64,000 bases of DNA from an uncultured Bacteroidales bacterium (GTDB taxonomy: Bacteria > Bacteroidota > Bacteroidia > Bacteroidales > Muribaculaceae). A model generated the notes under the pieces. That model ran no database searches and was not told the DNA's origin. It worked only from the letters and a program-made list of their open reading frames with translations. A program made the translations under genes and the position numbers. Shown in pieces: positions 20,868-39,827 of this stretch. The stretch is from positions 27,786-91,785 of the forward strand of contig CACWID010000016.1 of assembly GCA_902760865.1 (NCBI GenBank), in the 5' to 3' direction. Position 1 is the stretch's first letter. Every line of letters begins with the position of its first letter.

Positions 20868-21299
20868 ATGAAAAAGACGATTATAACGATGCTTATCGCA
20901 CTGGTGGCCATCTGCGCCAGCGCCGAGACCTATAGCTACCTGAAGTTCACCCGGACCAACGGCTCGACCGTGACCTGCTCGGTAGAGGGCCTCAAGCTCA
21001 CCTACGATAATACTAATGTGACCATCACCAATGCCGAGGGCACCACGACCATCGCCCTGGCCGAGGTGCAGGACATGTACTTCAGCAACGAGGCCGGCAC
21101 CGACCCGAGCTACCAGCTTGGCGACGTGAACAAGGACGGCAATGTGAACATTAGCGACGTGACAGCACTGATCAACTACCTGCTGAGCCATGACGACAGC
21201 GCCATCGACCTGGATGCTGCCAACGTCAACGGCGACGAAACTGTGAGCATCGCCGACGTGACAGCACTGATCAACAACCTGCTGAGCCACAACGGCTGA
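20868..21299 (+). CDS. Small secreted dockerin-repeat protein
   Basis: A 143-residue protein; the ATG at 20868 gives a proper signal (MKKTIITMLIALVAICASA), whereas an in-frame ATG at 20838 adds ten charged residues. Residues 20-80 are a small beta domain (YLKFTRTNGSTVTCS..LTYDNTNVTI) common in short Bacteroidales secreted proteins. Residues 85-143 are a dockerin pair: GDVNKDGNVNISDVTALINYLL and VNGDETVSIADVTALINNLL. It may be an adapter that carries a dockerin for the large protein encoded upstream. The partner is not known. Confidence 0.83.
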   Translation: MKKTIITMLIALVAICASAETYSYLKFTRTNGSTVTCSVEGLKLTYDNTNVTITNAEGTTTIALAEVQDMYFSNEAGTDPSYQLGDVNKDGNVNISDVTALINYLLSHDDSAIDLDAANVNGDETVSIADVTALINNLLSHNG

Positions 21300-21331
21300 T
21301 TCTAGACACTTTAACACTACACACGACCATG

Positions 21332-21369
21332 TTGCGCTGGCTGGACCACTCCCGCCAGCGCAATTTTTT
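21332..21369 (+). terminator. Intrinsic terminator with T-run
   Basis: ttgcgctggc pairs with gccagcgcaa at 21354-21363, followed by six T. The stem is the same as that after the dockerin gene at 17.1 kb. Confidence 0.88.
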
Positions 21370-21379
21370 ATCACCCCTA

Positions 21380-21436
21380 CAATAACTATAACCACTATAG
21401 TCACTATAATTACTATAGTCACTATAGCCACTATAC
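21380..21436. repeat. CACTATAG-word tandem tract
   Basis: Seven or so variants of the word cactatagt/taactataac follow each other. A shorter tract of the same word lies at 17145-17167, after the other dockerin gene's terminator. It is non-coding. Confidence 0.75.
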
Positions 21437-21475
21437 CCCCCAATAAAAAGAAAAATCTTAAAAGATGTTAAAACA

Positions 21476-21508
21476 TTTGGTGGATTCAAAACTATTGTTA
21501 TACCTTTG
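21476..21508 (+). promoter_or_regulatory. Promoter of the ABC/GntR operon
   Basis: TTTG at 21476-21479, 21 bp, then tacctttg at 21501-21508. The operator begins three bases after the -7 box, so it covers the expected transcription start. Confidence 0.82.
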
Positions 21509-21510
21509 CA

Positions 21511-21532
21511 GTGTACTATTAAAGTAGTACAC
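21511..21532 (+). promoter_or_regulatory. Operator palindrome, probably bound by the GntR repressor
   Basis: gtgtacta-ttaaag-tagtacac is a perfect 8+8 bp inverted repeat at the start of transcription. YtrA-type GntR proteins bind palindromes of this kind at their own operon, and such a gene lies at 23321, third in this operon. Autorepression is therefore the likely logic (inference). Confidence 0.8.
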
Positions 21533-21570
21533 TAAGACAGTACAAGTTTAACCATTAAATATTATCTGTT

Positions 21571-22413
21571 ATGTTAAGTATCAACAATATCAGCTTCAGT
21601 TACAACAAGCGAAGTGGCGACCTGTTCCACGACTTCTCGCTTGAATTGAACGCCGGCAATGTTTACGGTCTGCTAGGAAAGAACGGTGCCGGCAAGTCCA
21701 CTCTCATCTATCTCATGACAGGCCTGCTGACCCCCAAGAGCGGCGAGGCCCTGCTTGACGGCGTGAATGTGCGCAAGCGTCTTCCCAAGACGATGAGCGA
21801 CATCTTCCTCGTTCCCGAGGAGTTTGAGTTGCCGCGCCTGAGCCTCAAGCAGTATGTGGACATCAATGCCCCGTTCTACCCCAACTTCAGCAAGGAGGAC
21901 ATGCAGCGTTACCTCGACATCTTTGAGATGGACGATGACATGGACGTGAAGCTCCAAGCGCTGTCGATGGGACAGAAGAAGAAAGTGTTTATGGCTTTCG
22001 CCTTTGCCGCCAACACCCACGTGCTCATCATGGACGAACCGACCAACGGCCTGGACATTCCCAGCAAGAGCCAGTTCCGCAAGCTCGTCACCACCGGCAT
22101 GACCGATGACAAGTTGATGCTCATCTCCACCCATCAGGTGCGTGACATCAGCGACATCCTGGACCACGTGACCATCATCGACCAGAGCCGCGTGCTGCTC
22201 AACACCAGTTTTGCCGACGTGATGAACAAGGTGGCCTTCCGCCCGCTGCGTGAAGGCGATCAGCCGCTGTTCGTGCTGCAAAGCCCCTACGGCCCCCTGG
22301 GTGCCGTTCCCGCCGAGGAAGGCGAGGAGACCAAAGTTGACCTGGAGATGCTCTTCAACGCCACCCTCCAGAATCCTGCTGCTATCAACCAATTATTCAC
22401 CACCTCAAAATGA
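21571..22413 (+). CDS. ABC transporter ATP-binding protein (YtrB-like)
   Basis: A 280-residue ATPase with Walker A LLGKNGAGKST, Q-loop region SDIFLVPEEFELP, a slightly unusual signature LSMGQKKK, Walker B VLIMDEPTNGLD and H-loop STHQ. A C-terminal extension of about 80 residues follows. Together with the overlapping permease and the GntR gene it forms a YtrA/YtrB-type system. Such systems often respond to cell-wall antibiotics or envelope stress in other bacteria; the substrate here is unknown. First gene after a promoter with an operator. Confidence 0.92.
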   Translation: MLSINNISFSYNKRSGDLFHDFSLELNAGNVYGLLGKNGAGKSTLIYLMTGLLTPKSGEALLDGVNVRKRLPKTMSDIFLVPEEFELPRLSLKQYVDINAPFYPNFSKEDMQRYLDIFEMDDDMDVKLQALSMGQKKKVFMAFAFAANTHVLIMDEPTNGLDIPSKSQFRKLVTTGMTDDKLMLISTHQVRDISDILDHVTIIDQSRVLLNTSFADVMNKVAFRPLREGDQPLFVLQSPYGPLGAVPAEEGEETKVDLEMLFNATLQNPAAINQLFTTSK

Positions 22414-23258
22414 ACACCACTATGAATACCGTCAATCAAATATTCGACTGGAGCCGTTTCACGGCCACCCTGCGCAAGGAAGTAGTAGAGAACTGGCGCC
22501 CGATCGTTTTCACCCTGCTGGGCGTCTACGGCCTGCTGACCATGATTATGATCCTCGGCAATGCAATTTCGTTTGATGACGCGGTGAGCGATGCTATGTC
22601 AGAAGGGATGGTGCCGCAGAAGGTTGTCTATGGCATCCTTGGGTTTTCTGTTATGATCGTCGCATCGATGGCCTTCAGGAAACTGACCTCTAAGACCGGC
22701 CGCATCGACATGATGACCTCACCGTCATCGACGCTCGAGAAATTCCTCGTCAACGGCGTGGTCTATGTACTGGGATTCTTTGTATCCTTCTTAATCCTGG
22801 CCCAACTGGCTGACCTTACCCGTATCGCAGTCATGCACATCTTCGGATTCCAAGGCTTCATTCCGGGTGTCATTAACTTTACCAATCTGGGTGCTGATTT
22901 CACCTATGGCCTGGGCAGTGAACTGTTTAAAGGCTCCTTGGCTGTCCCCTATGCATGGTGCAGCTTGTTGGCAACCTCTGGCATTTACCTGCTGGGCAGT
23001 GTGATGTGGCCCCGCCTGTCGCTGCTGAAGACCTTTGCCGCCATCTATGCCGTCGAGTTTGTGTTAGGTGTGTTGGCTGTTATCTTCATCTTCGTGTTTA
23101 GCGATATGGAATCTTTCGGCTATTGGGTCTTTATGCACGTTGACGGAATCTTACCCTTCTTGATGACCTTAATGGCTATTCAGGCCATTTTAGGCTGGGG
23201 CCTGGCATGGTACCTGTTCAAGCACAAAGACGTCATTTCACTCAAGTGGTGGAAGTGA
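22410..23258 (+). CDS. ABC transporter permease (ABC-2 type)
   Basis: A 282-residue membrane protein with about six hydrophobic segments (PIVFTLLGVYGLLTMIMILG, VYVLGFFVSFLILAQLA, FVLGVLAVIFIFVF, FLMTLMAIQAILGWGLAWYLF). Its ATG overlaps the stop codon of the ATPase gene by four bases (atga), which indicates translational coupling. It is the membrane partner of the preceding ATPase. Confidence 0.88.
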   Translation: MNTTMNTVNQIFDWSRFTATLRKEVVENWRPIVFTLLGVYGLLTMIMILGNAISFDDAVSDAMSEGMVPQKVVYGILGFSVMIVASMAFRKLTSKTGRIDMMTSPSSTLEKFLVNGVVYVLGFFVSFLILAQLADLTRIAVMHIFGFQGFIPGVINFTNLGADFTYGLGSELFKGSLAVPYAWCSLLATSGIYLLGSVMWPRLSLLKTFAAIYAVEFVLGVLAVIFIFVFSDMESFGYWVFMHVDGILPFLMTLMAIQAILGWGLAWYLFKHKDVISLKWWK

Positions 23259-23320
23259 TATCTGATTAGTGATTAGTGATTAGTGAAATTAGTGAAATTT
23301 CTATTAATCGACATTATATT

Positions 23321-23683
23321 ATGAACTTCAAGGATAATAAAGCGATTTATCTGCAGATTGCAGACCGCATCGGCGACCAGATTCTCTCCGGGGTCTTGGT
23401 TCCCGAGGGCAAGGTGCCCAGCGTGCGCGAGCTTGCAGCCGAGATCGAGGTCAATGCCAACACCGTGGCTCGCACCTACGACCACCTGCAGCAGAACGGC
23501 GTGATCTACACCAAGCGCGGACTGGGCTACTTCGTCTGCCCCGAAGCCAGAGACAAGATCGTGGCTTCGCGACGTGACCAGCTCATGCAAGGCGAAATGG
23601 ACTACTTCCTGGGCCAGCTCAAGGCTGTGGGCATCACCCCCGCCGAGCTCCAGGGACTCTATCAGGAATATCTCAGCAAGTAA
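23321..23683 (+). CDS. GntR-family repressor, YtrA subfamily
   Basis: A 120-residue regulator; the ATG at 23321 is used because the upstream in-frame extension runs through a gattag repeat tract. It has the short YtrA layout: a winged helix-turn-helix at residues 1-70 (AIYLQIADRIGDQI, PSVRELAAEIEVNANTVARTYDHLQQNGVIYTKRGLGYFV) and only two helices after it, with no ligand-binding domain. It lies in the ABC operon, whose promoter carries a matching palindrome, so it very probably represses its own operon. Confidence 0.92.
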   Translation: MNFKDNKAIYLQIADRIGDQILSGVLVPEGKVPSVRELAAEIEVNANTVARTYDHLQQNGVIYTKRGLGYFVCPEARDKIVASRRDQLMQGEMDYFLGQLKAVGITPAELQGLYQEYLSK

Positions 23684-23692
23684 ACATTCATC

Positions 23693-23767
23693 AACTACGA
23701 ATTACGCCAATTGAACTAATCAATCATCAACAATACAAGTTTAGAGATATTAGCGTAATTCGTAGTT
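23693..23767. repeat. 75-bp inverted repeat between GntR and the small membrane peptide
   Basis: aactacgaattacgc at 23693-23707 is exactly complementary to gcgtaattcgtagtt at 23753-23767, with 45 bp between. The word gtaattcgtagtttt occurs again near 49.53 kb. It could be a dispersed palindromic element or an attenuating hairpin before the next gene. Confidence 0.8.
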
Positions 23768-23785
23768 TTTAAAAACAACAGTATT

Positions 23786-23872
23786 ATGGAAAAGCAAGCA
23801 TTTGTAGCAACGGCAACAGTGGCCATCATCGCCCTCTTCTCGTTCATCACCAGCATCATCCTCTCACATTGA
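23786..23872 (+). CDS. 28-residue single-span membrane peptide
   Basis: Starts MEKQAFVATATVAIIAL and ends in a hydrophobic stretch with ITSIILSH; nearly the whole chain is one membrane span. The start context (acagtattATGGAa) is the same as that of the membrane-protein genes at 25142 and 25713, which supports real translation. A second peptide of the same length and style is encoded at 37192. No known family is recognised. It sits between the ABC/GntR genes and four membrane-protein genes. Confidence 0.62.
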   Translation: MEKQAFVATATVAIIALFSFITSIILSH

Positions 23873-23929
23873 GTGACCAGAAACCCGTGACAACAACAGT
23901 ATTATAACCTCCAGAAACAAGACAGCATT

Positions 23930-24478
23930 ATGGAACAGCAAGACACATATATTCCTAACGAGGACAGAACACTTGAGGAACTGTGCCAGGATATCAATCT
24001 CAGGGCCGAGAAGGTGTATATCTTGAAGGGCAGAAAGGATAAAACTATCCTGCTCATTGGCGTTGTGATTATCCTGGGGGTTTTGGCGCTCGCTTGGTAT
24101 CTCATGCGGGTTGAGATTAACTGGTACAGGGAGCCGATTGTGATATCAGCCATCGTGGGGTGGAGCTTTGTTTACATCCTGATCAATAAACTCTTGATTA
24201 ACAGGATGAAGCGTGCAGCAAGTCCCAAGCAGCACCTACGTATCGCCAAATGCCTGAAATGGTGGGACAAGTTTTTTAAAGCTATTGTGCCTGCAATGAT
24301 ATTTCCTTCGATCTGGTTATCGCAAGAAGATGTAGTGAATTATGGTACTTGTCTTTTGATCTTCTTCCCGCTCTTTATCCTCTTCTTTATCATCGCTCGC
24401 ATCGATAAAGATTTCAGTGAAGGCTTGGACGAATTGGAGTACCGACTCCAGGAATGTGTTCTTCCGGACAAGGGATGA
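23930..24478 (+). CDS. Small membrane protein, unknown function
   Basis: A 182-residue protein starting MEQQDTYIPNEDRTLEELCQ, with an amphipathic N-terminal helix, then four membrane spans (ILLIGVVIILGVLALAWYL, IVISAIVGWSFVYILI, AIVPAMIFPSIWL, CLLIFFPLFILFFII) and an acidic C-terminal helix (EGLDELEYRLQECV). Layout matches the three paralogues that follow, but the sequence is more distant. The leader taacctcc...acagcattATGGAacag resembles theirs. Function cannot be assigned. Confidence 0.72.
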   Translation: MEQQDTYIPNEDRTLEELCQDINLRAEKVYILKGRKDKTILLIGVVIILGVLALAWYLMRVEINWYREPIVISAIVGWSFVYILINKLLINRMKRAASPKQHLRIAKCLKWWDKFFKAIVPAMIFPSIWLSQEDVVNYGTCLLIFFPLFILFFIIARIDKDFSEGLDELEYRLQECVLPDKG

Positions 24479-24575
24479 TCTGAAACCTATGTAAATCGTC
24501 GCATGATGGGATTAAATGGGTTCTGGCCTTCAAGCGACATCAGAAAACGGATTTACGGAACCTGCCAATAGAACT

Positions 24576-25085
24576 ATGAAACAGATAGATTTGAACAACC
24601 TCGGCAAGGAAGAGCTGATGGAGCGCATCAAAGCCCAGAATTCCGAAGACTTAAAGGCCAATACAGGCTGCGGAACTATTTTTCTGGTCATCCTTGTGTT
24701 GAATATCTTCTCTTTTGTAGGTCAGAATGAAATTGACTGGAGTAATTGTGCAGTGCCCGCGGTCATCGTTCTGTGGAGCATAATTGAGGTGTGGTGGAAA
24801 AAAAGGTTGAACAAGTGTAATGGCGCCGGGGAATTGGTGAGCATGCATAAGAAATACATCAAGTACCGCAAGACAGAGTTTATCGTTGCCCTCGTGTTGA
24901 TGGTAGTATTGACTTATCCATTATATCTGAAATACACCGCAACTACCGTTCCTGTATGGCTCAGCATAATGGTTTGCGGCCTTTGGGTGGCATTGTTCTG
25001 CTATATCTTATGGCGCTTGCTGAAACCAAAAAAGTCAACAACCGAACAAGAGATTGACCGTCTGCAGGAACTCATCGGTAACTGA
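24576..25085 (+). CDS. Membrane protein, first of three tandem paralogues
   Basis: A 169-residue protein; the ATG at 24576 (MKQIDLNNLGKEELMERIK) is chosen because the next two paralogues begin in the same way. An N-terminal amphipathic helix precedes two pairs of membrane spans, and a C-terminal helix ends TEQEIDRLQELIGN, almost the same ending as its neighbours. It has no recognised domain. The copies probably form hetero-oligomers or specialised variants; this is a guess from the tandem arrangement. Confidence 0.75.
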   Translation: MKQIDLNNLGKEELMERIKAQNSEDLKANTGCGTIFLVILVLNIFSFVGQNEIDWSNCAVPAVIVLWSIIEVWWKKRLNKCNGAGELVSMHKKYIKYRKTEFIVALVLMVVLTYPLYLKYTATTVPVWLSIMVCGLWVALFCYILWRLLKPKKSTTEQEIDRLQELIGN

Positions 25086-25141
25086 CCGTTCAGATATATT
25101 TATCAATAACTAGATACAAACCTCCAAAATAAAACAGTATT

Positions 25142-25657
25142 ATGGAACAGATAAATTTGACAAACCTCAGCAAAGAAGAGCTGATGGAGCTCATCAAGAC
25201 CCGATGTGCCGAAGAACTGAGAAGCAAGAAGCTGTCATTTGGGTTTATCCTCATCACCCAAGTGTTTATGGCTTTCTACATGGTCTTGAGCAACTATGCT
25301 GCAAAATGGGAGTTTCCCCTTTTCCTTATCATTCTTCTTTTCGCAATGATTGAGGCTCTTATTGATGGCTGGGGGTACAATAGGTTGATCAAGTGCGACG
25401 ACGCCGGGACACTGGTGGACACCTATGAGAAGTACCTCAAATTTGAGAATACGCTCTTTATTGTTGCCGCCGTAGTAGCAGTGCTGATCGCTTGTCTTAT
25501 TTTTTCGGGGATTTTACCATTAACGGTAAAATCACCGCTACTCACCGGCTTTCTGGTATGCTGCATTCCCTTAAGCAGTTTAGGTGCCTTATTTTATAGA
25601 AGAAATTCAGCTATCGCTCAAGGTGTCAACCGCCTGCGGAAATTAATCGGTAACTGA
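25142..25657 (+). CDS. Membrane protein, second of three tandem paralogues
   Basis: A 171-residue protein starting MEQINLTNLSKEELMELIK. Four membrane spans, of which the third and fourth (VAAVVAVLIACLIFSGILPL, LTGFLVCCIPLSSLGALF) are nearly identical in protein and DNA to the third copy, while the N-terminal half differs more. Ends NRLRKLIGN. The leader aacctcc...acagtattATGG is shared with the third copy and the small peptide gene. No function is recognised. Confidence 0.75.
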   Translation: MEQINLTNLSKEELMELIKTRCAEELRSKKLSFGFILITQVFMAFYMVLSNYAAKWEFPLFLIILLFAMIEALIDGWGYNRLIKCDDAGTLVDTYEKYLKFENTLFIVAAVVAVLIACLIFSGILPLTVKSPLLTGFLVCCIPLSSLGALFYRRNSAIAQGVNRLRKLIGN

Positions 25658-25712
25658 CCGTTCAGATAAATGATCAATAACTAGTTATTAACCTCCTAAA
25701 CAAGGCAGTATT

Positions 25713-26216
25713 ATGGAACAGATATATGTAATAAAAATCAGCAAGGAAGAGCTGATGGAGCGCATCACAAACCGATGTGCCAAAGACCTGAAAGGCTACA
25801 AGGGCGGAGTTGTTGTTTGCCTCATCTTATTAGTGCTTATGGTCGCCTACATGTTATGGAGCCACAATGCTACAGCATGGGAGTATTCCCTTTTTATTCT
25901 TGCCTTGCTGATTCAGTATCTTATTGAAGGCTGGTGGATGAACAAGATCAGCAAGTGTGATGACGCCAAGACATTGGTGGACACCTATGAGAAGTACCTC
26001 AAATTTGAGAAGGTGTTCTTGATTATTGCCGCAGTTGTTGCAGTGCTGATCGCTTGTCTTATTTTTTCGGGGATTTTACCGTTAACGGTAAAGGCACCGC
26101 TATTATTCGGCTTTCTGGTATGCTGCATTCCCTTAGGCAGCTTGGGTGCCTTCAATAGAAGAAAATCAGCTATCGCTCAAGAAATCGACCGCCTGCGGAA
26201 ATTAATCGGTAACTGA
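25713..26216 (+). CDS. Membrane protein, third of three tandem paralogues
   Basis: A 167-residue protein starting MEQIYVIKISKEELMERIT, with four spans and the ending DRLRKLIGN. The segment from about 25970 to 26110 is almost identical in DNA to 25400-25540 in the copy before it, pointing to a recent duplication or gene conversion. A perfect 18-bp palindrome lies within the coding sequence at 26075-26092. The function is not recognised. Confidence 0.75.
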   Translation: MEQIYVIKISKEELMERITNRCAKDLKGYKGGVVVCLILLVLMVAYMLWSHNATAWEYSLFILALLIQYLIEGWWMNKISKCDDAKTLVDTYEKYLKFEKVFLIIAAVVAVLIACLIFSGILPLTVKAPLLFGFLVCCIPLGSLGAFNRRKSAIAQEIDRLRKLIGN

Positions 26217-26259
26217 TCTATCATCAATAGTTATTAACCATTTTCAATCCTCTTGAACT

Positions 26260-26814
26260 ATGAAAAGAATACCTATCATCACAGCGTTGATCCTGGCAAC
26301 GGTAGCCATCGTCTCCTGTAGCCAGGGCTCTGGCGACAACCCTTACGGCAAGAAAGTATTGATGACCACCATTCAGGTGAAGGCATCCGAAGACCTGATT
26401 GCCGCCAGCGACATTGAAATCACCTATTGGGGCAAGGGGGGCGTTCAAGTCACCGACACGATCACCTCCACCTTCTGGAAAAAAAGAATCCTCAACGACT
26501 CGTTCCCGACCGTAATCGGTTATCCCGAATACCGCTTGCTCATCAAGCCTGACGCCAAGTTTGACAAGGACAGGTGCCAACTGAAATTAGAGATCGCCCA
26601 CATGGACAAAATCTTGAACTTTGGCGAAATACCAATCAGCATCGATGACATCGCGAGCAGCAAGGTCCCGGCCTATCTGGAAGTACATGAAGGCGCAAGG
26701 AACTTGGTCCATAAACAGAGTGACCCTAATGTCTACAAGGTCTATATCAAAGATGGCAAATTGGAATACGATGACTACTCCATGTCTAAACAATCACAAG
26801 AACCCTCTAAATAA
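26260..26814 (+). CDS. Small lipoprotein, first of three relatives
   Basis: A 184-residue lipoprotein with lipid Cys20 (AIVSCSQGSG). The mature part has the pattern VKASEDLIAASDIEITYWGKGGVQVTDTIT, then a Trp, FPTVIGYPEYRLLI; this pattern recurs in the proteins encoded at 26824 and 27637. The chain is beta-rich and ends in a polar tail. I recognise no family. It lies 43 bp after the last membrane-protein gene. Confidence 0.75.
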   Translation: MKRIPIITALILATVAIVSCSQGSGDNPYGKKVLMTTIQVKASEDLIAASDIEITYWGKGGVQVTDTITSTFWKKRILNDSFPTVIGYPEYRLLIKPDAKFDKDRCQLKLEIAHMDKILNFGEIPISIDDIASSKVPAYLEVHEGARNLVHKQSDPNVYKVYIKDGKLEYDDYSMSKQSQEPSK

Positions 26815-26823
26815 AACAGAACG

Positions 26824-27498
26824 ATGAAAAAGCTATTATCATACTCCGCAATCATGATGCTTGCCGCAATGGTGATGACATCCTGTGGCCAGCAGAAACA
26901 GACCGAGACCGTAAAAGAGTATCCGCTGAAGGTCACCTACGTCATTGAGTGCTCTAAGGACTTGTTGAACTTGTGTGATGTGGTGGTCACCTATAAGGGG
27001 GACGATGGCGCCAACGTCGTTGACACTATCACTGCCGACCCCGACGACCCGGCATGGATGCAGACGTGGACCAAGACGGTCGGGACTCACCAGGTCCCTG
27101 TCAAAATCGGATTTGACTACACCCTGGTACAGAAGACCGACACGCTGATTAGCGACAGGGAGTGGATTTCACTCGACGCCAAGGGGTCAATCATTGCCGA
27201 GAAGATCGGCATCAGGAAGGGTATTGCCCGCTTGAGTGATATAAAAATCAACAGCAAGACCAATTTCTTTAAGGACTACTACATCATCCGTGAAAATGTC
27301 ATCAACACCCGCCACAACCTGGCCACCATCATCGATGTCTATAATGAACGACAGGCCTACTACCGTGAAGCAGCAGGAAGCAATACTTGCTATCTCGTCA
27401 CTCCACTCACACACGGCGACGGCTTGAAGGTCAAGACAACCTGCTGGAACGACGATGCCGGCAAGGCCGCTGGCGAGAGCCAAGCTGAAAAGCAGTGA
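26824..27498 (+). CDS. Small lipoprotein, second of three relatives
   Basis: A 224-residue lipoprotein with lipid Cys21 (VMTSCGQQKQ), nine bases after the previous gene. It shares the core YVIECSKDLLNLCDVVVTYKGDDGANVVDTIT, a Trp-Lys pair, and a following PVKIGFDYTL strand with its neighbours, then adds a longer C-terminal half (KINSKTNFFKDYYIIRENVIN). Likely on the inner face of the outer membrane or the cell surface. The function is unknown. Confidence 0.75.
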   Translation: MKKLLSYSAIMMLAAMVMTSCGQQKQTETVKEYPLKVTYVIECSKDLLNLCDVVVTYKGDDGANVVDTITADPDDPAWMQTWTKTVGTHQVPVKIGFDYTLVQKTDTLISDREWISLDAKGSIIAEKIGIRKGIARLSDIKINSKTNFFKDYYIIRENVINTRHNLATIIDVYNERQAYYREAAGSNTCYLVTPLTHGDGLKVKTTCWNDDAGKAAGESQAEKQ

Positions 27499-27547
27499 CA
27501 TCGGTATCATTTTTACCGCTTTTCTTCCTAAGGGTTTAAAAAAAGTG

Positions 27548-27555
27548 TAATTTTG
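27548..27555 (+). promoter_or_regulatory. Possible -7 box before the third lipoprotein
   Basis: taattttg matches TAnnTTTG and sits 81 bp before the ATG, in the only gap over 100 bp among these lipoprotein genes. No clear TTTG lies at the right distance. Confidence 0.35.
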
Positions 27556-27636
27556 TGTAATTTTTCTGCCAGTGGCCGCGTCTAACGGTCAAAAACAAGA
27601 GATCCACAAACAGAATATACTTTTAAAACAACACCT

Positions 27637-28125
27637 ATGATGAACGCTAAGAAAACCATCCGGATGGCAGCAATGCTGGCAATGACAGCCTTGTGTCTCA
27701 CATCTTGCATCAACGAGAGGGTCACCAACTACAGGATGTCTTTCTCGCCCGACTTGATCGAGACGTGTGACGTGACCGTCATCTACAGGGGAGAAAACGG
27801 CATTGAAATGACCGAGAGCGTGACCGACACGCTGTGGGAGAAAAGCTTTACCAACGACACACTGCCGCTGATTTTCGGCCTGGACTACAAGATCCAACCC
27901 AAGCAGGGCGTAAAACCCGCGAAGGAACAACTGGACCTGCAAGCCAAGTATTATTTTGAACTGAAACGTGACAAGCAGATCCTGTTCAGTTCCGGCAGCG
28001 ACAGCCTCATCTACGAGCAGGTGCGCGCCTCGCGGCTCGACAGCGTTATCCAGGAGGAGGCCAAACGCCACGCCGGCCCATTCTATTTCACAGCCAAGAA
28101 GGACGGCGTGTGGGATATGCAGTGA
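27637..28125 (+). CDS. Small lipoprotein, third of three relatives
   Basis: A 162-residue lipoprotein (tandem ATG codons at 27637 and 27640), lipid Cys24 in CLTSCINERV. The core MSFSPDLIETCDVTVIYRGENGIEMTE, the WEKSF block and LPLIFGLDYKI align by eye with the two preceding lipoproteins. The tail is Arg/Lys-rich. Its first codons (MNAKKT) are nearly the same as those of the M16 peptidase encoded next, as is the DNA there. Confidence 0.73.
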   Translation: MMNAKKTIRMAAMLAMTALCLTSCINERVTNYRMSFSPDLIETCDVTVIYRGENGIEMTESVTDTLWEKSFTNDTLPLIFGLDYKIQPKQGVKPAKEQLDLQAKYYFELKRDKQILFSSGSDSLIYEQVRASRLDSVIQEEAKRHAGPFYFTAKKDGVWDMQ

Positions 28126-28208
28126 CGCCACGGCACTCGCCAAGGACGCTCTATTGAATAGAATAACACAGAATTATTAACAATATCACTTTTAACAATT
28201 AATTGATT

Positions 28209-31052
28209 ATGAACGCTAAGAAAACGTTTGTTGTATTGATGTTGATGCTGATGGTATTCAGCACCAACATGGTGATGGCACAGCAGATGCCGCCCATCCC
28301 CGTGGACGACGCTGTGCGCATCGGAAAGCTTGATTGCGGATTGACCTACTACATCCGCCACAACGACTATCCCGAGCACCGTGTGAACTTCTACATCGCA
28401 CAGCGCGTGGGCTCCATCCAGGAGGAGGAGAGCCAGCGAGGTCTTGCCCACTTCCTGGAGCACATGGCCTTCAACGGCAGTGAGCACTTCAACGGCGAGG
28501 GCAAGAGCATCATCGACTACACCCGCTCGCTGGGTGTGAACTTCGGTGGCGACCTGAATGCTTACACCAGCATCGCCGAGACCGTCTATAACATCAACGA
28601 CGTGCCCAGCACCCGCCAGAGCGCCATCGACTCCTGTCTGCTCATCCTCAAGGACTGGAGCAACGGCCTGTTGCTCACCGACGAGGAGATCGACAAGGAG
28701 CGCGGCGTGATCCACGAGGAGTGGCGCCTGGGCCAGAGCGCACAGATGCGTATGCTGGAGCGCCAGCTCGAGACGCTGTATCCCGGCTCCAAGTTCGGCA
28801 AGCGCCTGCCCATCGGCCTGATGAGCGTGGTTGACAACTTCAAGTACAACGAGTTGCGCGACTACTACCACAAGTGGTACCGTCCCGACAACCAGGCCCT
28901 GGTCATCGTCGGCGACGTGGATGTTGACCACATCGAGGCCAAGATCAAGGAGATGTATAAGGATATGCCCGCTCCTGATCCCAATGCTGCCCAGGTGACC
29001 CTCGAGCCCGTGCCCGACAATGATCAGCCCATCATCGTGGTAGACAAGGACAAGGAGCAGCAGTATAGCGACGTAAGCATCATGTTCAAGCATGAGGCAG
29101 TACCCAAGGAGGACAAGGCCAGCATGGAATACCTGCTTGTTGACTACGTGACGAACCTCGCGACTGATATGCTCAACCAGCGCCTGAGTGATATGGCCCA
29201 GGAGCCCGACTGCCCCTTCACCAACGCTTACTGCTATGATGGCGATTATATCCTCGCCAACTCAATGGACGCCCTCACAGTTGACGTGATGCCCAAGGAG
29301 GGCCAGAGCGAAGCCGCTACCCAGGCCGTCATCATCGAGGTGATGCGTGCCGCACAGCACGGCTTCACCGCCAGCGAGTATGACCGTGCCCGTGACGAGG
29401 CCATGAGCCAGCTCGAGAAGCGCTATAACAACCGCGACAAGGTCAGCAATGAGAGTTACGGTCGCGACTACTGCCGCAACTACCTGGACGGCGAGCCCAT
29501 CCCCTCGATCGAGATGCTGTATCAGATCATGGGTATGCTAGCTCCCCAAATTCCCGTTGAGGCCATCAACCAATTCCTGCCTGAAGTCATCAGTACCGAC
29601 GGCAAGAACCTGGTGATTGCCAACTTCAACCAGGAGAAGGACGGTGCCGTATATCCCACTGTCGAGGGACTGCGTGCCGCCTATGACGCTGCTGCCAGCG
29701 CCAACATCGAGCCCTATGTCGACAACGTGAACAACGAGCCCCTGATGAGCACCATGCCCAAGAAGGGCCAGATCACCAAGGAGAGCGAGAACACCACCCT
29801 CGGCTACAAGGAACTGGAGCTGAGCAATGGTGCCCATGTCGTCCTCAAGAAGACCGACTTCAAGCAGGACGAGATCCGAATGAGTGCCTTCCAGCGCGGC
29901 GGCCAGTCGCTCTACGGCGAGAAGGATTGGGCCAACCTGATGATGATCGGTGACCTCGACAGCTATACCGGTGTGGGCAACTTCTCCAACTCCGACCTCA
30001 AGAAGGCGCTGTCCGGCAAGCAGGTCAACGTCGGTCTGAGCATCAGCCAGTTTACCGACGAGCTGAGCGGTAACAGCACCGTCAAGGACCTGGAGACCAT
30101 GTTCCAGCTCATCTACCTCAAGTTCACCGCACTGAACAAGGACGAGAAGAAGTTCAACCAGACCATGACACTGATGGAAACGCAGCTCAAGAACAAGGAT
30201 CTCATGCCCGAGAGTGCCCTGAGTGACTCGCTGCAGTACATCCTGACCAACCGCAGCTGGCGCACCAAGCCCTTCAATGTTGATGACCTGAAGGGTGTCA
30301 ACCTGGACCGCATCATGGAGATTGCCAAGGAGCGCACCGCCAATGCCGCCAACTACACCTTCACCTTCGTCGGCAACTTTGACGAAGCCGTTATCCGTCC
30401 TCTCATCGAGCAGTACATTGCCAGCCTGCCCGCCAAGAAGGGCGTGAAGAGCAACTGGGTGAACGATTTAGACATGCCCGATGGTCAGACCATCTGCCAC
30501 TTCACCAAGAAGATGGAGTCGCCCAAGGAATATGAGGTTGTCATCTGGCACGACAGAAATCTGCCCTACAGCCTGGAGAACGAGATCAAGGCCGACATCC
30601 TGGGTCAAGTGCTGAGCCGCATCTATCTGCAGAAGATCCGCGAGGATGCCGGTGCCGCCTATTCGGTTCAAGCCATGGGCCAGGTCGGCATCTCGGGTGG
30701 CAAGTCCCAGACACTGGTACTCGCTGTGTGCCCCGTGAACCCCGAGTTTGAGCAGATGGCACTGGATATCCTCAACCAGGAGATGGTCAATGCCGGCACC
30801 ACCATCGATGCCACCGCATTCAACGAGGCCGTCGAGAACATGATCAAGGACTACAACACCAACATCAAGGAGAACTGGTTCTGGATGGGCATTCTCTCGA
30901 ATTATCTCATGTACGGTTTTGACCAGATTACCGGTTATGAGCAGATTGTCAAGGCCCAGACGCCCGAGACCATTGCTGCCTTCGCCCGCCAACTCTACGG
31001 CGCCGGCAACAAGATCGAGCTTGTCATGAAGCCGATGACAGTAGACAAATAA
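28209..31052 (+). CDS. M16-family zinc metallopeptidase (pitrilysin type), secreted
   Basis: A 947-residue protein from the ATG at 28209, with a signal peptide (MNAKKTFVVLMLMLMVFSTNMVMAQ). It has the inverted zinc motif HxxEH at His81-His85 (HFLEHMAFNG) and a downstream acidic ligand segment GVIHEEWR near residue 170. Two homologous halves follow, and the second half lacks the zinc motif, as in the family. It probably degrades peptides in the periplasm. A close paralogue lies at 32086, and the terminator at 31062 separates it from the next gene. Confidence 0.93.
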   Translation: MNAKKTFVVLMLMLMVFSTNMVMAQQMPPIPVDDAVRIGKLDCGLTYYIRHNDYPEHRVNFYIAQRVGSIQEEESQRGLAHFLEHMAFNGSEHFNGEGKSIIDYTRSLGVNFGGDLNAYTSIAETVYNINDVPSTRQSAIDSCLLILKDWSNGLLLTDEEIDKERGVIHEEWRLGQSAQMRMLERQLETLYPGSKFGKRLPIGLMSVVDNFKYNELRDYYHKWYRPDNQALVIVGDVDVDHIEAKIKEMYKDMPAPDPNAAQVTLEPVPDNDQPIIVVDKDKEQQYSDVSIMFKHEAVPKEDKASMEYLLVDYVTNLATDMLNQRLSDMAQEPDCPFTNAYCYDGDYILANSMDALTVDVMPKEGQSEAATQAVIIEVMRAAQHGFTASEYDRARDEAMSQLEKRYNNRDKVSNESYGRDYCRNYLDGEPIPSIEMLYQIMGMLAPQIPVEAINQFLPEVISTDGKNLVIANFNQEKDGAVYPTVEGLRAAYDAAASANIEPYVDNVNNEPLMSTMPKKGQITKESENTTLGYKELELSNGAHVVLKKTDFKQDEIRMSAFQRGGQSLYGEKDWANLMMIGDLDSYTGVGNFSNSDLKKALSGKQVNVGLSISQFTDELSGNSTVKDLETMFQLIYLKFTALNKDEKKFNQTMTLMETQLKNKDLMPESALSDSLQYILTNRSWRTKPFNVDDLKGVNLDRIMEIAKERTANAANYTFTFVGNFDEAVIRPLIEQYIASLPAKKGVKSNWVNDLDMPDGQTICHFTKKMESPKEYEVVIWHDRNLPYSLENEIKADILGQVLSRIYLQKIREDAGAAYSVQAMGQVGISGGKSQTLVLAVCPVNPEFEQMALDILNQEMVNAGTTIDATAFNEAVENMIKDYNTNIKENWFWMGILSNYLMYGFDQITGYEQIVKAQTPETIAAFARQLYGAGNKIELVMKPMTVDK

Positions 31053-31061
31053 AGCTTATGT

Positions 31062-31106
31062 CAATAATGAGCCAGGAACGGTACAGAGCCTCCTGGCTCA
31101 TTATTG
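31062..31106 (+). terminator. Strong hairpin after the first M16 gene
   Basis: A perfect 16-bp stem (caataatgagccagga with its complement) and a 13-base loop, ten bases after the stop. There is no long T-run. Confidence 0.75.
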
Positions 31107-31164
31107 CTTAAACAAGCAATAACATTTTTTACTCACTTCACCAAACTTCAAAAAACTACTCATT

Positions 31165-32031
31165 ATGAAACATCTTACACAACATAGAATCCTGATGGCC
31201 CTCGGCCTGTTGGTCATTGTCGGTGCATTGTTCTGCATCACCTCCTGCGGCCCGAAAAAACAAAAAATCGATGACACCACGGTGCTGCCCATCAAGGACA
31301 AAGCCGAACTCGACAAGTTACTTGGCCTTCCCATCCTGCCCGAGTACACTATCGACGGGTATTATACCAAAACCGATTTCATAACCGGTGACGAACAGTT
31401 CGTTTTGTGCTGCAAGTTCGTCAATGAAGTCACCCCCGAGGAGGTCCAGAAAATCCTGGCTCAGGTCGATAGTGTTTACCACCACGGATGGTACTCATTT
31501 GACCTGGGAGAGAAAAACAACATGAGGCTCTTCTTTGACCTTGACACCACATTGGCAGACCGGAAGATGCCCGATCCCCTGGACAACAACATCCATATCG
31601 CAATTGAACTGCGTGCCAGGGAGAAAGACTCATGGAAGGAATTTAACGTCGTGTTCAGGAACAATCGTGCCGACTACAGTGTCATCGTTGACCGCGACAC
31701 TCTCACCAAAGTACTGGGCGTGGAAATGCCCCCGCTGAAAGAAACGACCCGCAGCGACGAGAGCATCTATTTTGAATTTGACACTGTTCCTGGCGAGGAG
31801 TTCTACCAAGCCCTCGAGAAGGCACCTCACTGGAAAGTTTCCCACCGTGGCGATATGACTTTCTATTATTTTGACTACGATGATGGGGAATACTGGACTA
31901 CCGTCGACCTCGTCAAGGGCGAAACCCAGTTGTCCTTCTACCGGGCAAAATCAATGAACAGCACTGAAGACTTCATCGACGAAATGAAGCAGCGCGCCAA
32001 CGATAAGAAAAAGAAGAACGAGTCAAAATAA
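31165..32031 (+). CDS. Lipoprotein between two M16 peptidases, unknown function
   Basis: A 288-residue lipoprotein; its signal is long (MKHLTQHRILMALGLLVIVGALFCITSCG), with Cys28 the likely lipid site. The mature part is acidic and beta-rich, with repeated FxLDxT and FYYFDYDDGEYW patterns, and ends in a Lys-rich tail (KKKKNESK). No family is recognised. It stands 54 bp before the second M16 gene, so co-expression with that peptidase is likely. Confidence 0.75.
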   Translation: MKHLTQHRILMALGLLVIVGALFCITSCGPKKQKIDDTTVLPIKDKAELDKLLGLPILPEYTIDGYYTKTDFITGDEQFVLCCKFVNEVTPEEVQKILAQVDSVYHHGWYSFDLGEKNNMRLFFDLDTTLADRKMPDPLDNNIHIAIELRAREKDSWKEFNVVFRNNRADYSVIVDRDTLTKVLGVEMPPLKETTRSDESIYFEFDTVPGEEFYQALEKAPHWKVSHRGDMTFYYFDYDDGEYWTTVDLVKGETQLSFYRAKSMNSTEDFIDEMKQRANDKKKKNESK

Positions 32032-32085
32032 AGGCCCGAGGCCATCTCTAGGCTAACGCTTACCTGAACTAAAAGAATCTGCATC

Positions 32086-34914: not shown

Positions 34915-34946
34915 TCAACAATACAACAAACAGTTTTCATCAATGT

Positions 34947-34986
34947 GAGCGCTGGCAGATGTGATATCTGTCAGCGCTCTTTTTTA
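34947..34986 (+). terminator. Intrinsic terminator after the second M16 gene
   Basis: gagcgctggcagat pairs with atctgtcagcgctc (one G-T pair), followed at once by a T-rich run. Confidence 0.88.
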
Positions 34987-35025
34987 GGTTTCCTATCCCC
35001 CATTCATCGACATGCTGTAAAAGAA

Positions 35026-35112
35026 TTAGACACTAGAGCGTAAAAAAAATAGACAATCGGCAATTTTGGCGCAAAATAGTTTGCCACGTCTGCTGCCCGC
35101 ATGATACTTTTG
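35026..35112 (+). promoter_or_regulatory. Regulated promoter, copy 1 of a shared 87-bp region
   Basis: TTTG at 35080-35083, 21 bp, tacttttg at 35105-35112. Upstream, ttagacactagagcgtaaaa and a second tagaca at 35050 form direct half-sites 23 bp apart. The same layout with no gaps is at 37026-37112. Confidence 0.75.
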
Positions 35113-35210
35113 CCGTTGTCAGCCGCTACGATGACACCTCGGGGCGGGTCATGGCAACAATAGGAGAGTATCATTCACAACCATTATTTAAAAACTAAAC
35201 AATCTGAAAT

Positions 35211-36905: not shown

Positions 36906-36936
36906 GGTTTTATTCATATAATGGAGTCTATTGGAG

Positions 36937-36962
36937 GGTGTGCGATGCCGAAATCGCGCACC
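36937..36962 (+). terminator. Hairpin after the third dockerin gene
   Basis: ggtgtgcgat pairs with atcgcgcacc (one G-T pair) around a six-base loop; a short T-run follows at 36970. Confidence 0.65.
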
Positions 36963-37025
36963 TTCCTGCTTTTTGACACTCCAGGACGGCGCCTTGAAGG
37001 GCTTTGCCGTCACAGTGTCAAAGAT

Positions 37026-37191: not shown

Positions 37192-37278
37192 ATGAATACG
37201 CAGACTTGTATCTTAACAATCACAATGATTGCCATAGCCGTCATCACCATCATCTCGACGCTCATCACCAGCATCTGA
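37192..37278 (+). CDS. 28-residue single-span membrane peptide, second example
   Basis: Starts MNTQTCILTITMIAIAV and ends STLITSI; one hydrophobic span with no charged residues. Length equals that of the peptide encoded at 23786, and both end in an ITSI-type motif. It has its own strong promoter and a terminator at 37406, giving a transcript of about 320 nt with nothing else coded in it. The RNA itself could also be the active product. No family is known to me. Confidence 0.58.
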   Translation: MNTQTCILTITMIAIAVITIISTLITSI

Positions 37279-37544: not shown

Positions 37545-37555
37545 CAAAACAACCG

Positions 37556-37600: not shown

Positions 37601-37603
37601 AAA

Positions 37604-38521
37604 ATGGCTTACCTAGACATTAACAACGTGGTGAAACGCTATGAGGAGCATACCGCTCTGGCTGGCGTTTCCATGCAGGTGGAGCAAGGCTGCATCTACG
37701 GCTTGCTGGGCCCCAATGGCGCCGGCAAGAGCACCCTGATCCGCATCATCAACCGCATCATCGCCGCCGACGAGGGCACCGTCACCCTCAACGGCAAGCA
37801 GATGACCGATGCCGACATCACCCACATCGGCTATCTGCCCGAGGAGCGCGGCCTGTACAAGAAGATGAAGGTGGGTGACCATATCGTCTATCTGGGGCGT
37901 CTCAAGGGAATGACCAAAGCCGATGCCGTGGCATCGATGCACTGGTGGCTCGACCGCTTTGACCTCAAGGAGTGGGAAAACAAGAAGGTGGAACAGCTGT
38001 CCAAGGGCATGCAGCAGAAGGTGCAGTTCATCGGCACCGTCATCCACCGCCCGCCGCTGCTGATCTTCGACGAGCCGTTCTCGGGCTTTGACCCCGTGAA
38101 CGCCGAGCAGCTGAAGGTCGAGATCCTCGCCCTGCGCGACCAGGGCAGCACCATCCTGTTCTCGACCCACAACATGGCGTCGGTCGAGGAAGTGTGCCAG
38201 CAGATCACCCTGCTCAACCATGCCCAGGTGGTGCTCACCGGCAGCGTCGACGAGGTGAAGCAGCAGCACAAGAAAAACATCATCGCCGTGCAGACCCCCG
38301 ACACCGTCGAGCCCAACCCCGAGATGTTTGCTATTCTCCCCCCCGACCCCGTGAGGAAGGGCGACACCCGCATCAAACTTGCCCAGGGTGTAAACGTGCG
38401 CGACGCCATCAGCTGGCTCAACGAGCACTACCACCTCACCGGATTCTCCGAGGTGCTGCCCAGCATGAATGAGATTTTCATCGAGACCGTCAAATCCAAA
38501 AACACTGAGAACAATGAATAA
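37604..38521 (+). CDS. ABC transporter ATP-binding protein (NatA-like)
   Basis: A 305-residue ATPase: Walker A LLGPNGAGKST, signature LSKGMQQKVQ, Walker B LLIFDEPFSGFDPVN, H-loop FSTHNM, and a C-terminal DUF4162-like extension found in NatA-type exporters. It overlaps the permease gene by eight bases. NatAB systems export Na+ or other small molecules; the cargo here is not known. Confidence 0.9.
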   Translation: MAYLDINNVVKRYEEHTALAGVSMQVEQGCIYGLLGPNGAGKSTLIRIINRIIAADEGTVTLNGKQMTDADITHIGYLPEERGLYKKMKVGDHIVYLGRLKGMTKADAVASMHWWLDRFDLKEWENKKVEQLSKGMQQKVQFIGTVIHRPPLLIFDEPFSGFDPVNAEQLKVEILALRDQGSTILFSTHNMASVEEVCQQITLLNHAQVVLTGSVDEVKQQHKKNIIAVQTPDTVEPNPEMFAILPPDPVRKGDTRIKLAQGVNVRDAISWLNEHYHLTGFSEVLPSMNEIFIETVKSKNTENNE

Positions 38522-39827
38522 GCTACGCCTCATCATAGCCCGCGAATACATGTCGATTGTCGGGCGCAAGTCATTCATCATCATGACTTTGCTATTCCCA
38601 TTCTTGATGATTGCCATCGGTTCCATCCCCGTTGTGATGTCCTACATGAACGACAAGGGAGACCAGACGCAACAGATTGCCGTCATCGATGAGACGGGAC
38701 GTTATGCCGCCGCATTGCCTAACGACAACAAGTTCAACTTTGTCGCCATCAACGGTGACACCGTGACCAATGCCCGTGAGTTCTACAACAAGTCCAACGG
38801 CAGCATCAGTGCCGTGATCATCATCCCTCGCGATGTGGACAGCACTGGCGTGGTCAACATTTATAGCGAGGGCACCATCATCCCCGCTCTGGAATCCACT
38901 GTCAAGAGCGCCCTGACCGACACTATCGAGAACGCCCACCTGGCGGCTATGGGCATTCCCAACCTGCAGCAGATTGTGGACAAGGCCCACGTCAACATCG
39001 ACATTCACGCCATCAAGTGGAGCGATACGGGTGACGAGGAAGAGTCCTCGACCGATATTGCCTTCTTCTTGGGTATCATTCTCTCATTAATCATCTTCTG
39101 GTTTGTATTCTTCAGCGGCACGATGATCATGAACAATGTTGTTGAGGAGAAAACCAACCGCATTGTCGAGGTAGTGGTGAGCAGTTGCCGGCCTTTCCAT
39201 CTCATGATGGGCAAAATCATCGGCGTAGGCTTGTCGGTACTGACCCAGATGGCTATCTGGATTGTACTGCTGGGCATTGCTGGGACAATCGGAGGCAGCC
39301 TGTTAGGAACCGGCGCTGCTGTGCCTAGCCCCGATATGATGGGTGCCGGAGCAGCCGTAACCCCTGAGGTTGAAGGCGAATTTGCCAGCATCATGAGACA
39401 GGCCCTGGCTATCAACTACACGCCCATCATCATTAACTTCCTGCTCTACTTTGTTGAGGGATATCTGCTGTATTGCGCCATCTTTGCGGCCCTCGGCTCG
39501 GCAGTGGACCAGGCCAGTGACACCTCACAGTTCCTGACTCCCGTGATGCTACTCATGATCTTCTCCTTCTATGCCGCAATGGGTTGCGCCGAGAATCCCG
39601 ATGGACCGATGGCATTCTGGTGCTCGATCATTCCGTTCACATCACCCACCGTGATGATGGTTAGGCTACCCTTTGATGTCCCGATCTGGCAAATCATCCT
39701 GAGCCATGTGTTGCTGATTGTAACGGCGCTTGCCATCGTATGGCTCGCTGCACGCATCTACCGCCGCGGCATCCTCAGCTACGGCAAGAAGGCCAGCTTC
39801 AAGGACCTGTTCAACTGGCTCAAGTGA
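38514..39827 (+). CDS. ABC-2 type permease (NatB-like)
   Basis: A 437-residue membrane protein from the ATG at 38514, which overlaps the previous gene (ATGAATAA). One N-terminal span (FIIMTLLFPFLMIAIGSIPVVM), a large extracytoplasmic domain of about 150 residues, then five or six C-terminal spans with the family block NNVVEEKTNRIVEVVVSSCRPFHLMMGKI. Partner of the preceding ATPase. Confidence 0.9.
   Translation: MNKLRLIIAREYMSIVGRKSFIIMTLLFPFLMIAIGSIPVVMSYMNDKGDQTQQIAVIDETGRYAAALPNDNKFNFVAINGDTVTNAREFYNKSNGSISAVIIIPRDVDSTGVVNIYSEGTIIPALESTVKSALTDTIENAHLAAMGIPNLQQIVDKAHVNIDIHAIKWSDTGDEEESSTDIAFFLGIILSLIIFWFVFFSGTMIMNNVVEEKTNRIVEVVVSSCRPFHLMMGKIIGVGLSVLTQMAIWIVLLGIAGTIGGSLLGTGAAVPSPDMMGAGAAVTPEVEGEFASIMRQALAINYTPIIINFLLYFVEGYLLYCAIFAALGSAVDQASDTSQFLTPVMLLMIFSFYAAMGCAENPDGPMAFWCSIIPFTSPTVMMVRLPFDVPIWQIILSHVLLIVTALAIVWLAARIYRRGILSYGKKASFKDLFNWLK

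What the first reader, a model, noticed from the sequence alone, without database searches (positions are those of the whole stretch)
21571..28125. Candidate undescribed envelope system: ABC/GntR operon plus small membrane proteins and lipoproteins
Behind one regulated promoter lie an ABC exporter, its repressor, a 28-residue membrane peptide, four small four-span proteins and three related lipoproteins, nearly all on one strand with short gaps. None of the last eight has a known family. The setting suggests a stress- or antibiotic-induced envelope module with inner-membrane and outer-membrane parts.
Basis: inference. Interest (0 to 1): 0.78.

Follow-up and report, generated by a model that had tools for sequence, protein, structure and literature searches.

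The report
YtrA-type envelope regulon with membrane micropeptide
In a group of rumen bacteria, one small repressor appears to control an inner-membrane pump, an undescribed 28-residue membrane peptide, small membrane proteins and lipoproteins, and, from a second site, an outer-membrane barrel, so it may link both membranes in one stress response.

Summary
The genes are there as described, and more lies outside the interval. A consensus Bacteroidota promoter (TTTG-N21-TACCTTTG) sits 2 nt before GTGTA-N12-TACAC, nearly the YtrA operator of Bacillus subtilis. GntR and operator co-occur: 73 of 74 same-genus genomes with GntR have the site, 1 of 27 without. The 28-residue peptide is a real, genus-restricted gene family: 24 core members in 73 loci, behind GntR, dN/dS about 0.3; found in 36 of 101 genomes, none lacking GntR. 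LP-type lipoproteins follow GntR in 26 of 73 loci, with an M16 peptidase after them in 19 of the 26. The four-span proteins sit here in only 2 of 73, but their family occurs only in GntR-bearing genomes, and a second copy of the promoter-operator precedes an outer-membrane barrel operon, often with a four-span gene first. In 13 of 73 loci the barrel instead lies directly behind GntR, never with the peptide/lipoprotein form.

In other genera tblastn found none of the eight small proteins beside ABC/GntR (0 of 36 loci). So this is a lineage-specific variant of a YtrA-type ABC regulon reaching both membranes. Induction by cell-wall stress is inferred, not shown.

The parts
21476..21508 (+). Bacteroidota-type promoter TTTG-N21-TACCTTTG
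   Evidence: Only match of this form on the + strand in 21400-28300; TAnnTTTG lies 2 nt before the operator in 67 of the 68 same-genus loci in which the operator pattern was found (73 scanned)
21510..21533 (.). YtrA-type operator AGTGTA-N12-TACACT (core GTGTACTA-N6-TAGTACAC at 21511-21532)
   Evidence: B. subtilis YtrA site AGTGTA-13bp-TACACT (PMC8060467, passages seen)
21571..22413 (+). ABC ATPase
   Evidence: PF00005 7e-26
22410..23258 (+). putative ABC permease, 7 hydrophobic segments, no Pfam/NCBIfam match
   Evidence: 4-nt overlap with ATPase; found by tblastn in 34 of 40 sampled loci
23321..23683 (+). GntR repressor, YtrA-sized (120 aa)
   Evidence: PF00392 1.5e-14; the 8 best solved chains are 113-134 aa
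23693..23767 (+). 19-nt inverted repeat between GntR and the peptide
   Evidence: fold z-score -5.05
23786..23872 (+). 28-residue single-span membrane peptide, family member A
   Evidence: 24 core members (window included) in 73 loci, dN/dS about 0.29; 36 of 101 genus genomes; 1 of 118 in the family sample, the own genome
23930..24478 (+). small multi-span protein M1
24576..25085 (+). small four-span protein M2
25142..25657 (+). small four-span protein M3 (66% identical to M4)
25713..26216 (+). small four-span protein M4
26260..26814 (+). lipoprotein LP1
   Evidence: Lipobox; family behind GntR in 26 of 73 loci; alignment
26824..27498 (+). lipoprotein LP2
   Evidence: Lipobox
27637..28125 (+). 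lipoprotein LP3 (138-nt gap before it; a lone TAnnTTTG at 27548 without a -33 TTTG)
   Evidence: Lipobox; (one search prints the TAnnTTTG position 30 too high)
28209..31052 (+). M16 peptidase, frequent downstream neighbour
   Evidence: PF00675/PF05193; M16 in 31 of 73 fetched loci
37192..37278 (+). second membrane peptide (family member B) with a consensus promoter at 37080-37112, upstream of a second ABC transporter
37604..39827 (+). second ABC transporter (ATPase 37604-38521, permease about 38514-39827)
   Evidence: ATPase PF00005; ORFs; the relative of the permease in L151 has ABC2_membrane_3

Best explanation
This is a YtrA-type GntR regulon of a rumen Muribaculaceae genus, adapted to a two-membrane envelope. 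The repressor binds a palindrome overlapping the start of transcription of its own operon (site and geometry shown by sequence and conservation; binding inferred). When an envelope signal, most likely a disturbed lipid-linked cell-wall precursor or a membrane-active compound, releases it (inferred from B. subtilis YtrA), the cell makes an ABC exporter, a single-span 28-residue peptide that sits against the exporter or another inner-membrane partner (inferred), small multi-span proteins, and lipoproteins; in trans, from a second operator, it makes an OMP_b-brl_3 outer-membrane barrel with its lipoprotein and, in most cases, a four-span protein. Exporter and barrel act in one response (inferred), since the barrel stays behind the same operator whether it is encoded after GntR or elsewhere.
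For: Operator/regulator co-occurrence 73 of 74 vs 1 of 27 genomes. Promoter 2 nt before operator in 67 of 68 loci. Match to the published YtrA site and to a two-operon YtrA regulon with a small membrane protein, YtrG (PMC8060467, PMC12772383, passages). A second operator precedes a barrel operon in the own genome and in 10 of 14 further regions fetched; the same promoter was printed for 10 of these 11 (L254 was not matched by the pattern). A four-span-family gene is first behind that operator in 7 of the 11 and just upstream in 3. Barrel directly behind GntR in 13 of 73 loci, 0 of 13 with peptide, LP or M16; cis and trans barrels 51.5% identical over 726 residues. Peptide and four-span families in 36 and 45 of 74 genomes with GntR, 0 of 27 without.
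Against: No expression data. Four-span genes stand behind this operon in only 2 of 73 loci, and most of their many other copies were not checked for an operator (place list cut). LP family occurs without GntR (13 of 27). In 7 of 26 LP loci no M16 is visible nearby. Thirteen of 73 loci have none of peptide, LP, M16 or cis barrel by my gene calls (one of them, L032, does have the barrel). In the own genome the four-span genes at the second site lie upstream of the operator, not behind it. A stable hairpin between GntR and the peptide could end or attenuate transcription. The genomes are related, so co-occurrence tests overstate independence; the 2-mismatch operator pattern has chance hits (reversed control 0-3 per genome). 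In B. [quoted passage not shown]
Confidence: 0.6

Rival explanations
1. Only ABC/permease/GntR (plus the peptide) is a unit. The stretch up to the M16 peptidase is a variable zone in which duplicating lipoproteins and small membrane proteins accumulate with no shared function.
For: Content behind GntR changes from species to species, including other 131-143-residue multi-span proteins, an alpha/beta hydrolase, an S41 peptidase and a thioredoxin-like protein; M family here in 2 of 73; LP family also elsewhere.
Against: LP follows GntR in 26 loci, with M16 after it in 19, and neither occurs with the cis barrel; the four-span family recurs at the second operator; the peptide is tied to the locus.
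Confidence: 0.3
2. The 28-residue peptide is the cargo: a leaderless peptide exported by the ABC pump, which also relieves GntR, like the phenol-soluble modulin/PmtR arrangement; M16 peptidases process or degrade it.
For: ATPase and GntR have sub-threshold matches to the NCBIfam models of the modulin exporter ATPase PmtA and its regulator PmtR; that modulins relieve PmtR is recalled, no paper on it was opened (listing only). M16 peptidases are near; a second peptide precedes a second ABC transporter.
Against: The peptide is uniformly hydrophobic with low hydrophobic moment (0.18-0.24; mean hydrophobicity 0.72-0.79), the profile of a membrane span rather than of a surface-active peptide; curated Pmt scores not reached.
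Confidence: 0.12
3. Ordinary GntR/ABC drug-efflux operon with unrelated neighbours; the peptide is a remnant of the one-span protein that is the usual fourth gene.
For: The usual fourth gene in other genera begins with a short polar start and a span; in G003 (L068) the fourth gene is a 43-residue one-span ORF.
Against: Purifying selection on the peptide; the barrel operons and the second peptide group are not explained.
Confidence: 0.1

Closest known systems
Bacillus subtilis YtrA regulon (ytrGABCDEF and ywoBCD)
   Same: GntR repressor with ABC genes, operator AGTGTA-N12/13-TACACT, two target operons, a small membrane protein in the operon (YtrG); the second operon codes for a membrane protein, a hydrolase and an MFS transporter (passages)
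   Different: Here one ATPase and usually one permease, no YtrE/YtrF in the window; the second operon codes for an outer-membrane barrel and lipoprotein; no similarity of the peptide to YtrG was tested
Sulfolobus acidocaldarius YtrASa
   Same: Represses its own operon and one more locus, both coding for membrane proteins, with the site over the start of transcription (PMC6746942, passages)
   Different: Archaeal; 14-bp core motif; membrane protein instead of ABC genes in its operon
Staphylococcus PmtR/PmtABCD
   Same: GntR regulator with ABC exporter; weak profile similarity
   Different: Curated scores not reached; that its cargo is amphipathic is recalled, the peptide here is not amphipathic
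MacB-type ABC / HlyD / TolC-like sets behind the same GntR in other genera (L036, L049, L053, L059, L325)
   Same: Same ABC-permease-GntR core (permease not seen in L059) followed by export-type genes
   Different: No peptide, four-span or LP family by tblastn; the names MacB, HlyD, TolC are my recognition by size, spans and N-termini, not a family search

Membership tests
YtrA subfamily of GntR regulators | GntR winged-helix domain at the N terminus | tested here: met
   PF00392, residues 10-72, 1.5e-14
YtrA subfamily of GntR regulators | Short C-terminal part of about 50 residues | tested here: met
   48 residues follow the domain in a 120-residue protein; feature as given in PMC4494728 (passages)
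YtrA subfamily of GntR regulators | Operon with an ABC transporter | tested here: met
YtrA subfamily of GntR regulators | Long palindrome with GT/AC far from the centre | tested here: met
   AGTGTA-N12-TACACT, spacer 12 instead of the 13 of B. subtilis
YtrA subfamily of GntR regulators | Binding of the palindrome and release by lipid II-cycle antibiotics | not testable with these tools
   Needs protein and live cells
YtrBCDEF transporter | Second ATPase YtrE and MacB-like YtrF in the operon | tested here: not met
   No such gene between 21571 and 28125
PmtR/PmtABCD | Curated scores of NF047563 and NF047565 | tested here: not met
   53.4 of 200 and 110.9 of 350 bits
OMP_b-brl_3 (PF14905) for the second operon | Pfam gathering score | tested here: met
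   213.6 vs 27 bits, own genome, L106
Known small-protein families (Pfam, NCBIfam) for the 28-residue peptide | Any model above its cut-off | tested here: not met
   None; best is a SecE model at E 0.095, 12.5 of 126 bits
Anti-phage defence (PADLOC) for permease, GntR, M1-M4, LP1-LP3 | Model match at E 0.01 | tested here: inconclusive
   No match but one weak GntR/Csa3 match at E 0.002, 16 bits, probably the shared helix-turn-helix; ATPase and peptide were not sent

The most novel reading that the evidence does not exclude
The peptides are a new class of ABC-transporter-associated micro-subunits (A behind the YtrA-type pump, B before a second ABC pump of the same locus), and the regulon builds one trans-envelope machine: inner-membrane exporter, peptide, four-span protein, outer-membrane lipoprotein and OMP_b-brl_3 barrel, moving a lipid-linked or amphipathic substrate across both membranes under control of a YtrA-type sensor.
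Probability: 0.22. Interest if true: 0.78.

Novelty: new variant of a known kind. Interest (0 to 1): 0.56.

Why it matters
The comparative study of YtrA regulons that I saw in passages lists no Bacteroidetes YtrA regulator in its table and found most such regulons to be a single ABC operon (PMC4494728). Here the cis-regulatory evidence ties an inner-membrane ABC pump to an outer-membrane barrel that is encoded now in cis, now in trans, but behind the same operator, and adds a selected 28-residue membrane peptide. If right, it gives a tractable diderm counterpart of the Ytr response, whose function is still unsettled in Bacillus, and a handle on OMP_b-brl_3 barrels of unknown role.

Tried and rejected
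One unit of all eleven genes everywhere: rejected; family-wide the core is ATPase-permease-GntR, in 22 of 36 other-genus loci followed by a 200-350-residue one-span protein (my reading; sequences of 18). Defence system: no support. Amphipathic-peptide reading of the 28-mer: disfavoured. A conserved helical face in the peptide: not significant (p 0.43). Known RNA element in 21000-38000: none in Rfam at gathering score. GCGTCTAA as a shared promoter box before LP3 and the second ABC gene: 2 sites, 1.34 expected by chance. Sigma-70-type promoter and terminator scans: close to shuffles (9 vs 10.2 and 8 vs 5.9). Solved structures for permease and lipoprotein profiles: none useful (none; one at E 0.53). 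Literature: searches listed nothing on this locus judging by titles and abstract starts (81: no paper at all); of these only PMC4494728 was opened, in passages.

Limits. The place lists were cut, so second sites in G200 and G208 are unseen. Of 19 listed operator sites that are extra or lie on another contig than GntR in other genomes, I fetched 14; the other five are four 2-mismatch sites and one in G186. The E-values refer to a tiny set; besides the M-like proteins, five larger (212-230-residue) multi-span proteins of the second loci scored 23-32 bits, so the edge of the M family is not sharp; other multi-span controls scored under 7 bits or not at all. Six of the 45 genomes with M matches have only E above 1e-4. 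My gene caller missed the cis barrel in L032. G159 was dropped from the 74 for a 39% match. The seven GntR-less genomes not printed were inferred from the list. Five of 52 peptide matches lie on contigs without GntR; one of 48 looks frame-broken.
Full report
What is there. The window is bases 27786-91785 of a 91,785-base contig of a 3.35-Mb draft genome. Public relatives of the locus are mostly metagenome assemblies titled Muribaculaceae, Bacteroidales or Prevotellaceae; many titles name ruminant gut sites, and RUG is recalled to stand for rumen genomes. On the + strand lie ATPase (21571-22413), permease (22410-23258), GntR (start ATG 23321), a 28-residue peptide (23786-23872), four small membrane proteins M1-M4, lipoproteins LP1-LP3 and an M16 peptidase; gaps are -4, 62, 102, 57, 97, 56, 55, 43, 9, 138 and 83 nt. 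Pfam and NCBIfam identify the ATPase and GntR; no match reaches a cut-off for the permease, peptide, M1-M4 and the lipoproteins sent (LP3 was not sent to Pfam, LP2 not to NCBIfam).

One regulated promoter. TTTG-N21-TACCTTTG ends 2 nt before GTGTACTATTAAAGTAGTACAC. It is the only match to that promoter form in 21400-28300 on the + strand; before LP3 there is a TAnnTTTG at 27548 without the -33 element. TAnnTTTG stands exactly 2 nt before the operator in 67 of the 68 same-genus loci where my pattern found an operator (73 loci scanned). The start of transcription should fall inside the operator, so bound repressor would block it (inference). The published B. subtilis YtrA site is AGTGTA-13bp-TACACT, in front of ytrGABCDEF and ywoBCD (PMC8060467, passages); here the spacer is 12.

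Operator and regulator go together. GntR was found in 74 of 101 same-genus genomes, own genome included. The palindrome with up to 2 mismatches was found in 73 of those 74 (the exception, G159, has only a 39% GntR match) and in 1 of 27 genomes without GntR, that one with 2 mismatches (Fisher test). The reversed control pattern also gave 0-3 hits per genome, so single 2-mismatch sites mean little; the co-occurrence and the fixed promoter geometry carry the argument. Species are related, so the test probability is too small.

The peptide is a gene. Of 73 same-genus loci (all 74 less G159), 37 have a short hydrophobic ORF within 260 nt behind GntR; 24 share one core (M-E-x-Q-A-F-V-A-T-A...), and 21 distinct sequences of these give pN/pS 0.42 and dN/dS about 0.29, against pN/pS 0.58 and 1.83 in the other two frames. 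A 16-sequence profile finds it in 36 of 101 genus genomes, all with GntR, but in only 1 of 118 genomes of a family-wide sample, the own one. In 67 sequences (window, 66 genus loci) all 48 hits at E 0.05 are on the operon strand. They fall in two groups: A behind GntR or near the lipoproteins, and B (9 sequences), of which 7 of 9 lie 0.29-0.60 kb behind an M16 or LPn gene and 5 of the 7 with a visible next gene, the window's 37192-37278 among them, precede an ABC ATPase gene. The helix profile is that of a membrane span, not of an amphipathic peptide.

The tail is real but variable. Behind GntR, LP-family lipoproteins occur in 26 of 73 loci (57 copies), in 19 of these with an M16 peptidase after them in the stretch shown; M16 occurs in 31 of 73; M-family proteins at this place only in the window and one more genome. 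Other loci hold different small multi-span proteins, a hydrolase, a thioredoxin-like protein or none of these. LP proteins also occur elsewhere: 64 of 101 genus genomes, 13 of the 27 without GntR, and 17 of 118 in the family sample, so LP is a wider family that probably expanded here. M-family proteins are multicopy, in 45 of 101 genus genomes, all with GntR, and in 3 of 118 of the family sample with a 4-sequence profile.

A second operon under the same operator. In the own genome the only other palindrome of this kind (up to 2 mismatches) is at contig 10, 74779-74800. It has the same promoter and stands 39 nt before an 852-residue OMP_b-brl_3 barrel followed by a lipoprotein; two M-family genes lie just upstream. 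I fetched 14 of 19 further listed sites in other genomes: 10 show a barrel operon (9 of the same type, 66-79% identical, 8 of these with the lipoprotein; and L259 with a barrel closer to the cis type), 3 turned out to be primary sites on broken contigs and 1 is at a contig end. Counting the own genome, in 7 of 11 a four-span M-family gene is the first gene behind the operator, in 3 it is just upstream, in 1 (L259) none. The nine of these M-like proteins that are not seeds score 29-43 bits (a neighbouring copy 68) with a model of 10 M proteins; most other multi-span controls score under 7 or nothing, but five larger multi-span proteins of these loci score 23-32. In 13 of 73 loci a barrel, 51.5% identical to the trans one over 726 residues in the pair compared, sits directly behind GntR (one is only 439 residues long), and none of these 13 has peptide, LP or M16; a fourteenth, L032, was missed by my gene caller but shows. 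By the counts and places none of these 14 genomes has a second site with fewer than 2 mismatches. So the barrel is either in cis or in trans, but behind the operator.

Beyond the genus. GntR was found in 75 of 119 family genomes. Among 40 loci read in detail (36 of them from other genera), ATPase and GntR were found in 40, the permease in 34, and pep28, M1-M4 and LP1-LP3 in none by tblastn at E 0.001, which is insensitive for a 28-residue query. The operator form GTGTA-N12-TACAC recurs upstream in most of them. The fourth gene in 22 of the 36, and in the Bacteroides, Paludibacter and two Tannerella records where it is visible, is a one-span protein; five tested reach no Pfam cut-off. In four loci plus L325 export genes that look like a MacB/HlyD/TolC set follow (names by recognition).

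How it most likely works. Shown by sequence: regulator, operator, promoter geometry, two target operons, selected peptide. Inferred from YtrA: autorepression, release during cell-wall precursor or membrane stress. Ytr in B. subtilis is induced by lipid II-cycle inhibitors, includes the small membrane protein YtrG, and its benefit is unsettled (PMC12772383, passages). Inferred from anatomy: exporter and barrel act on the same envelope problem in two membranes; the peptide is an accessory span. Membership: the regulator meets every YtrA feature that I could test; the transporter is not filed as YtrBCDEF because YtrE/YtrF are missing, nor as Pmt because curated scores are not reached.

Verdict. 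Observation confirmed; interpretation partly supported and extended. New variant of a known kind, with undescribed parts as far as Pfam, NCBIfam, PADLOC and the literature listings show.

Noticed in passing
window 37192-37278: Second membrane peptide of the same family with a consensus promoter (37080-37112), before a second ABC transporter; nine such sequences listed, window's included.
   Followed up: partly
window 23693-23767: 19-nt inverted repeat with stable fold between GntR and the peptide; the 14-nt arm recurs at 49536-49549. TCGTAG is within 30 nt upstream of the peptide in 15 of 24 core loci. Possible dispersed element or attenuator.
   Followed up: partly
L036, L049, L053, L059, L325: In other genera the GntR core is followed by genes that look like a MacB-type ABC, permeases, HlyD-like and TolC-like proteins.
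   Followed up: no
L068 (genome G003): Fourth gene reduced to a 43-residue one-span ORF, a possible parallel to the 28-residue peptide.
   Followed up: no
L156, L157, L161, L173, L174, L175, L192: Two permease genes in a row between ATPase and GntR.
   Followed up: no
window 27578-27585 and 37515-37522: GCGTCTAA box before LP3 and before the second ABC gene; also before the barrel in L032. Not more than chance in the window.
   Followed up: partly
window 28209-34914: Two M16-type peptidases in tandem with a 288-residue lipoprotein between them; tandem M16 genes also occur in some relatives.
   Followed up: no
L106 6182-8740 and L165 6331-7713: The trans barrel and an alpha/beta hydrolase of the cassette share a similar start QDF(S/N)G(K/T)W, possibly one N-terminal domain on two kinds of protein.
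   Followed up: no
window 21386-21440: Short imperfect ACTATA-type tandem repeats just upstream of the promoter, seen by eye.
   Followed up: no
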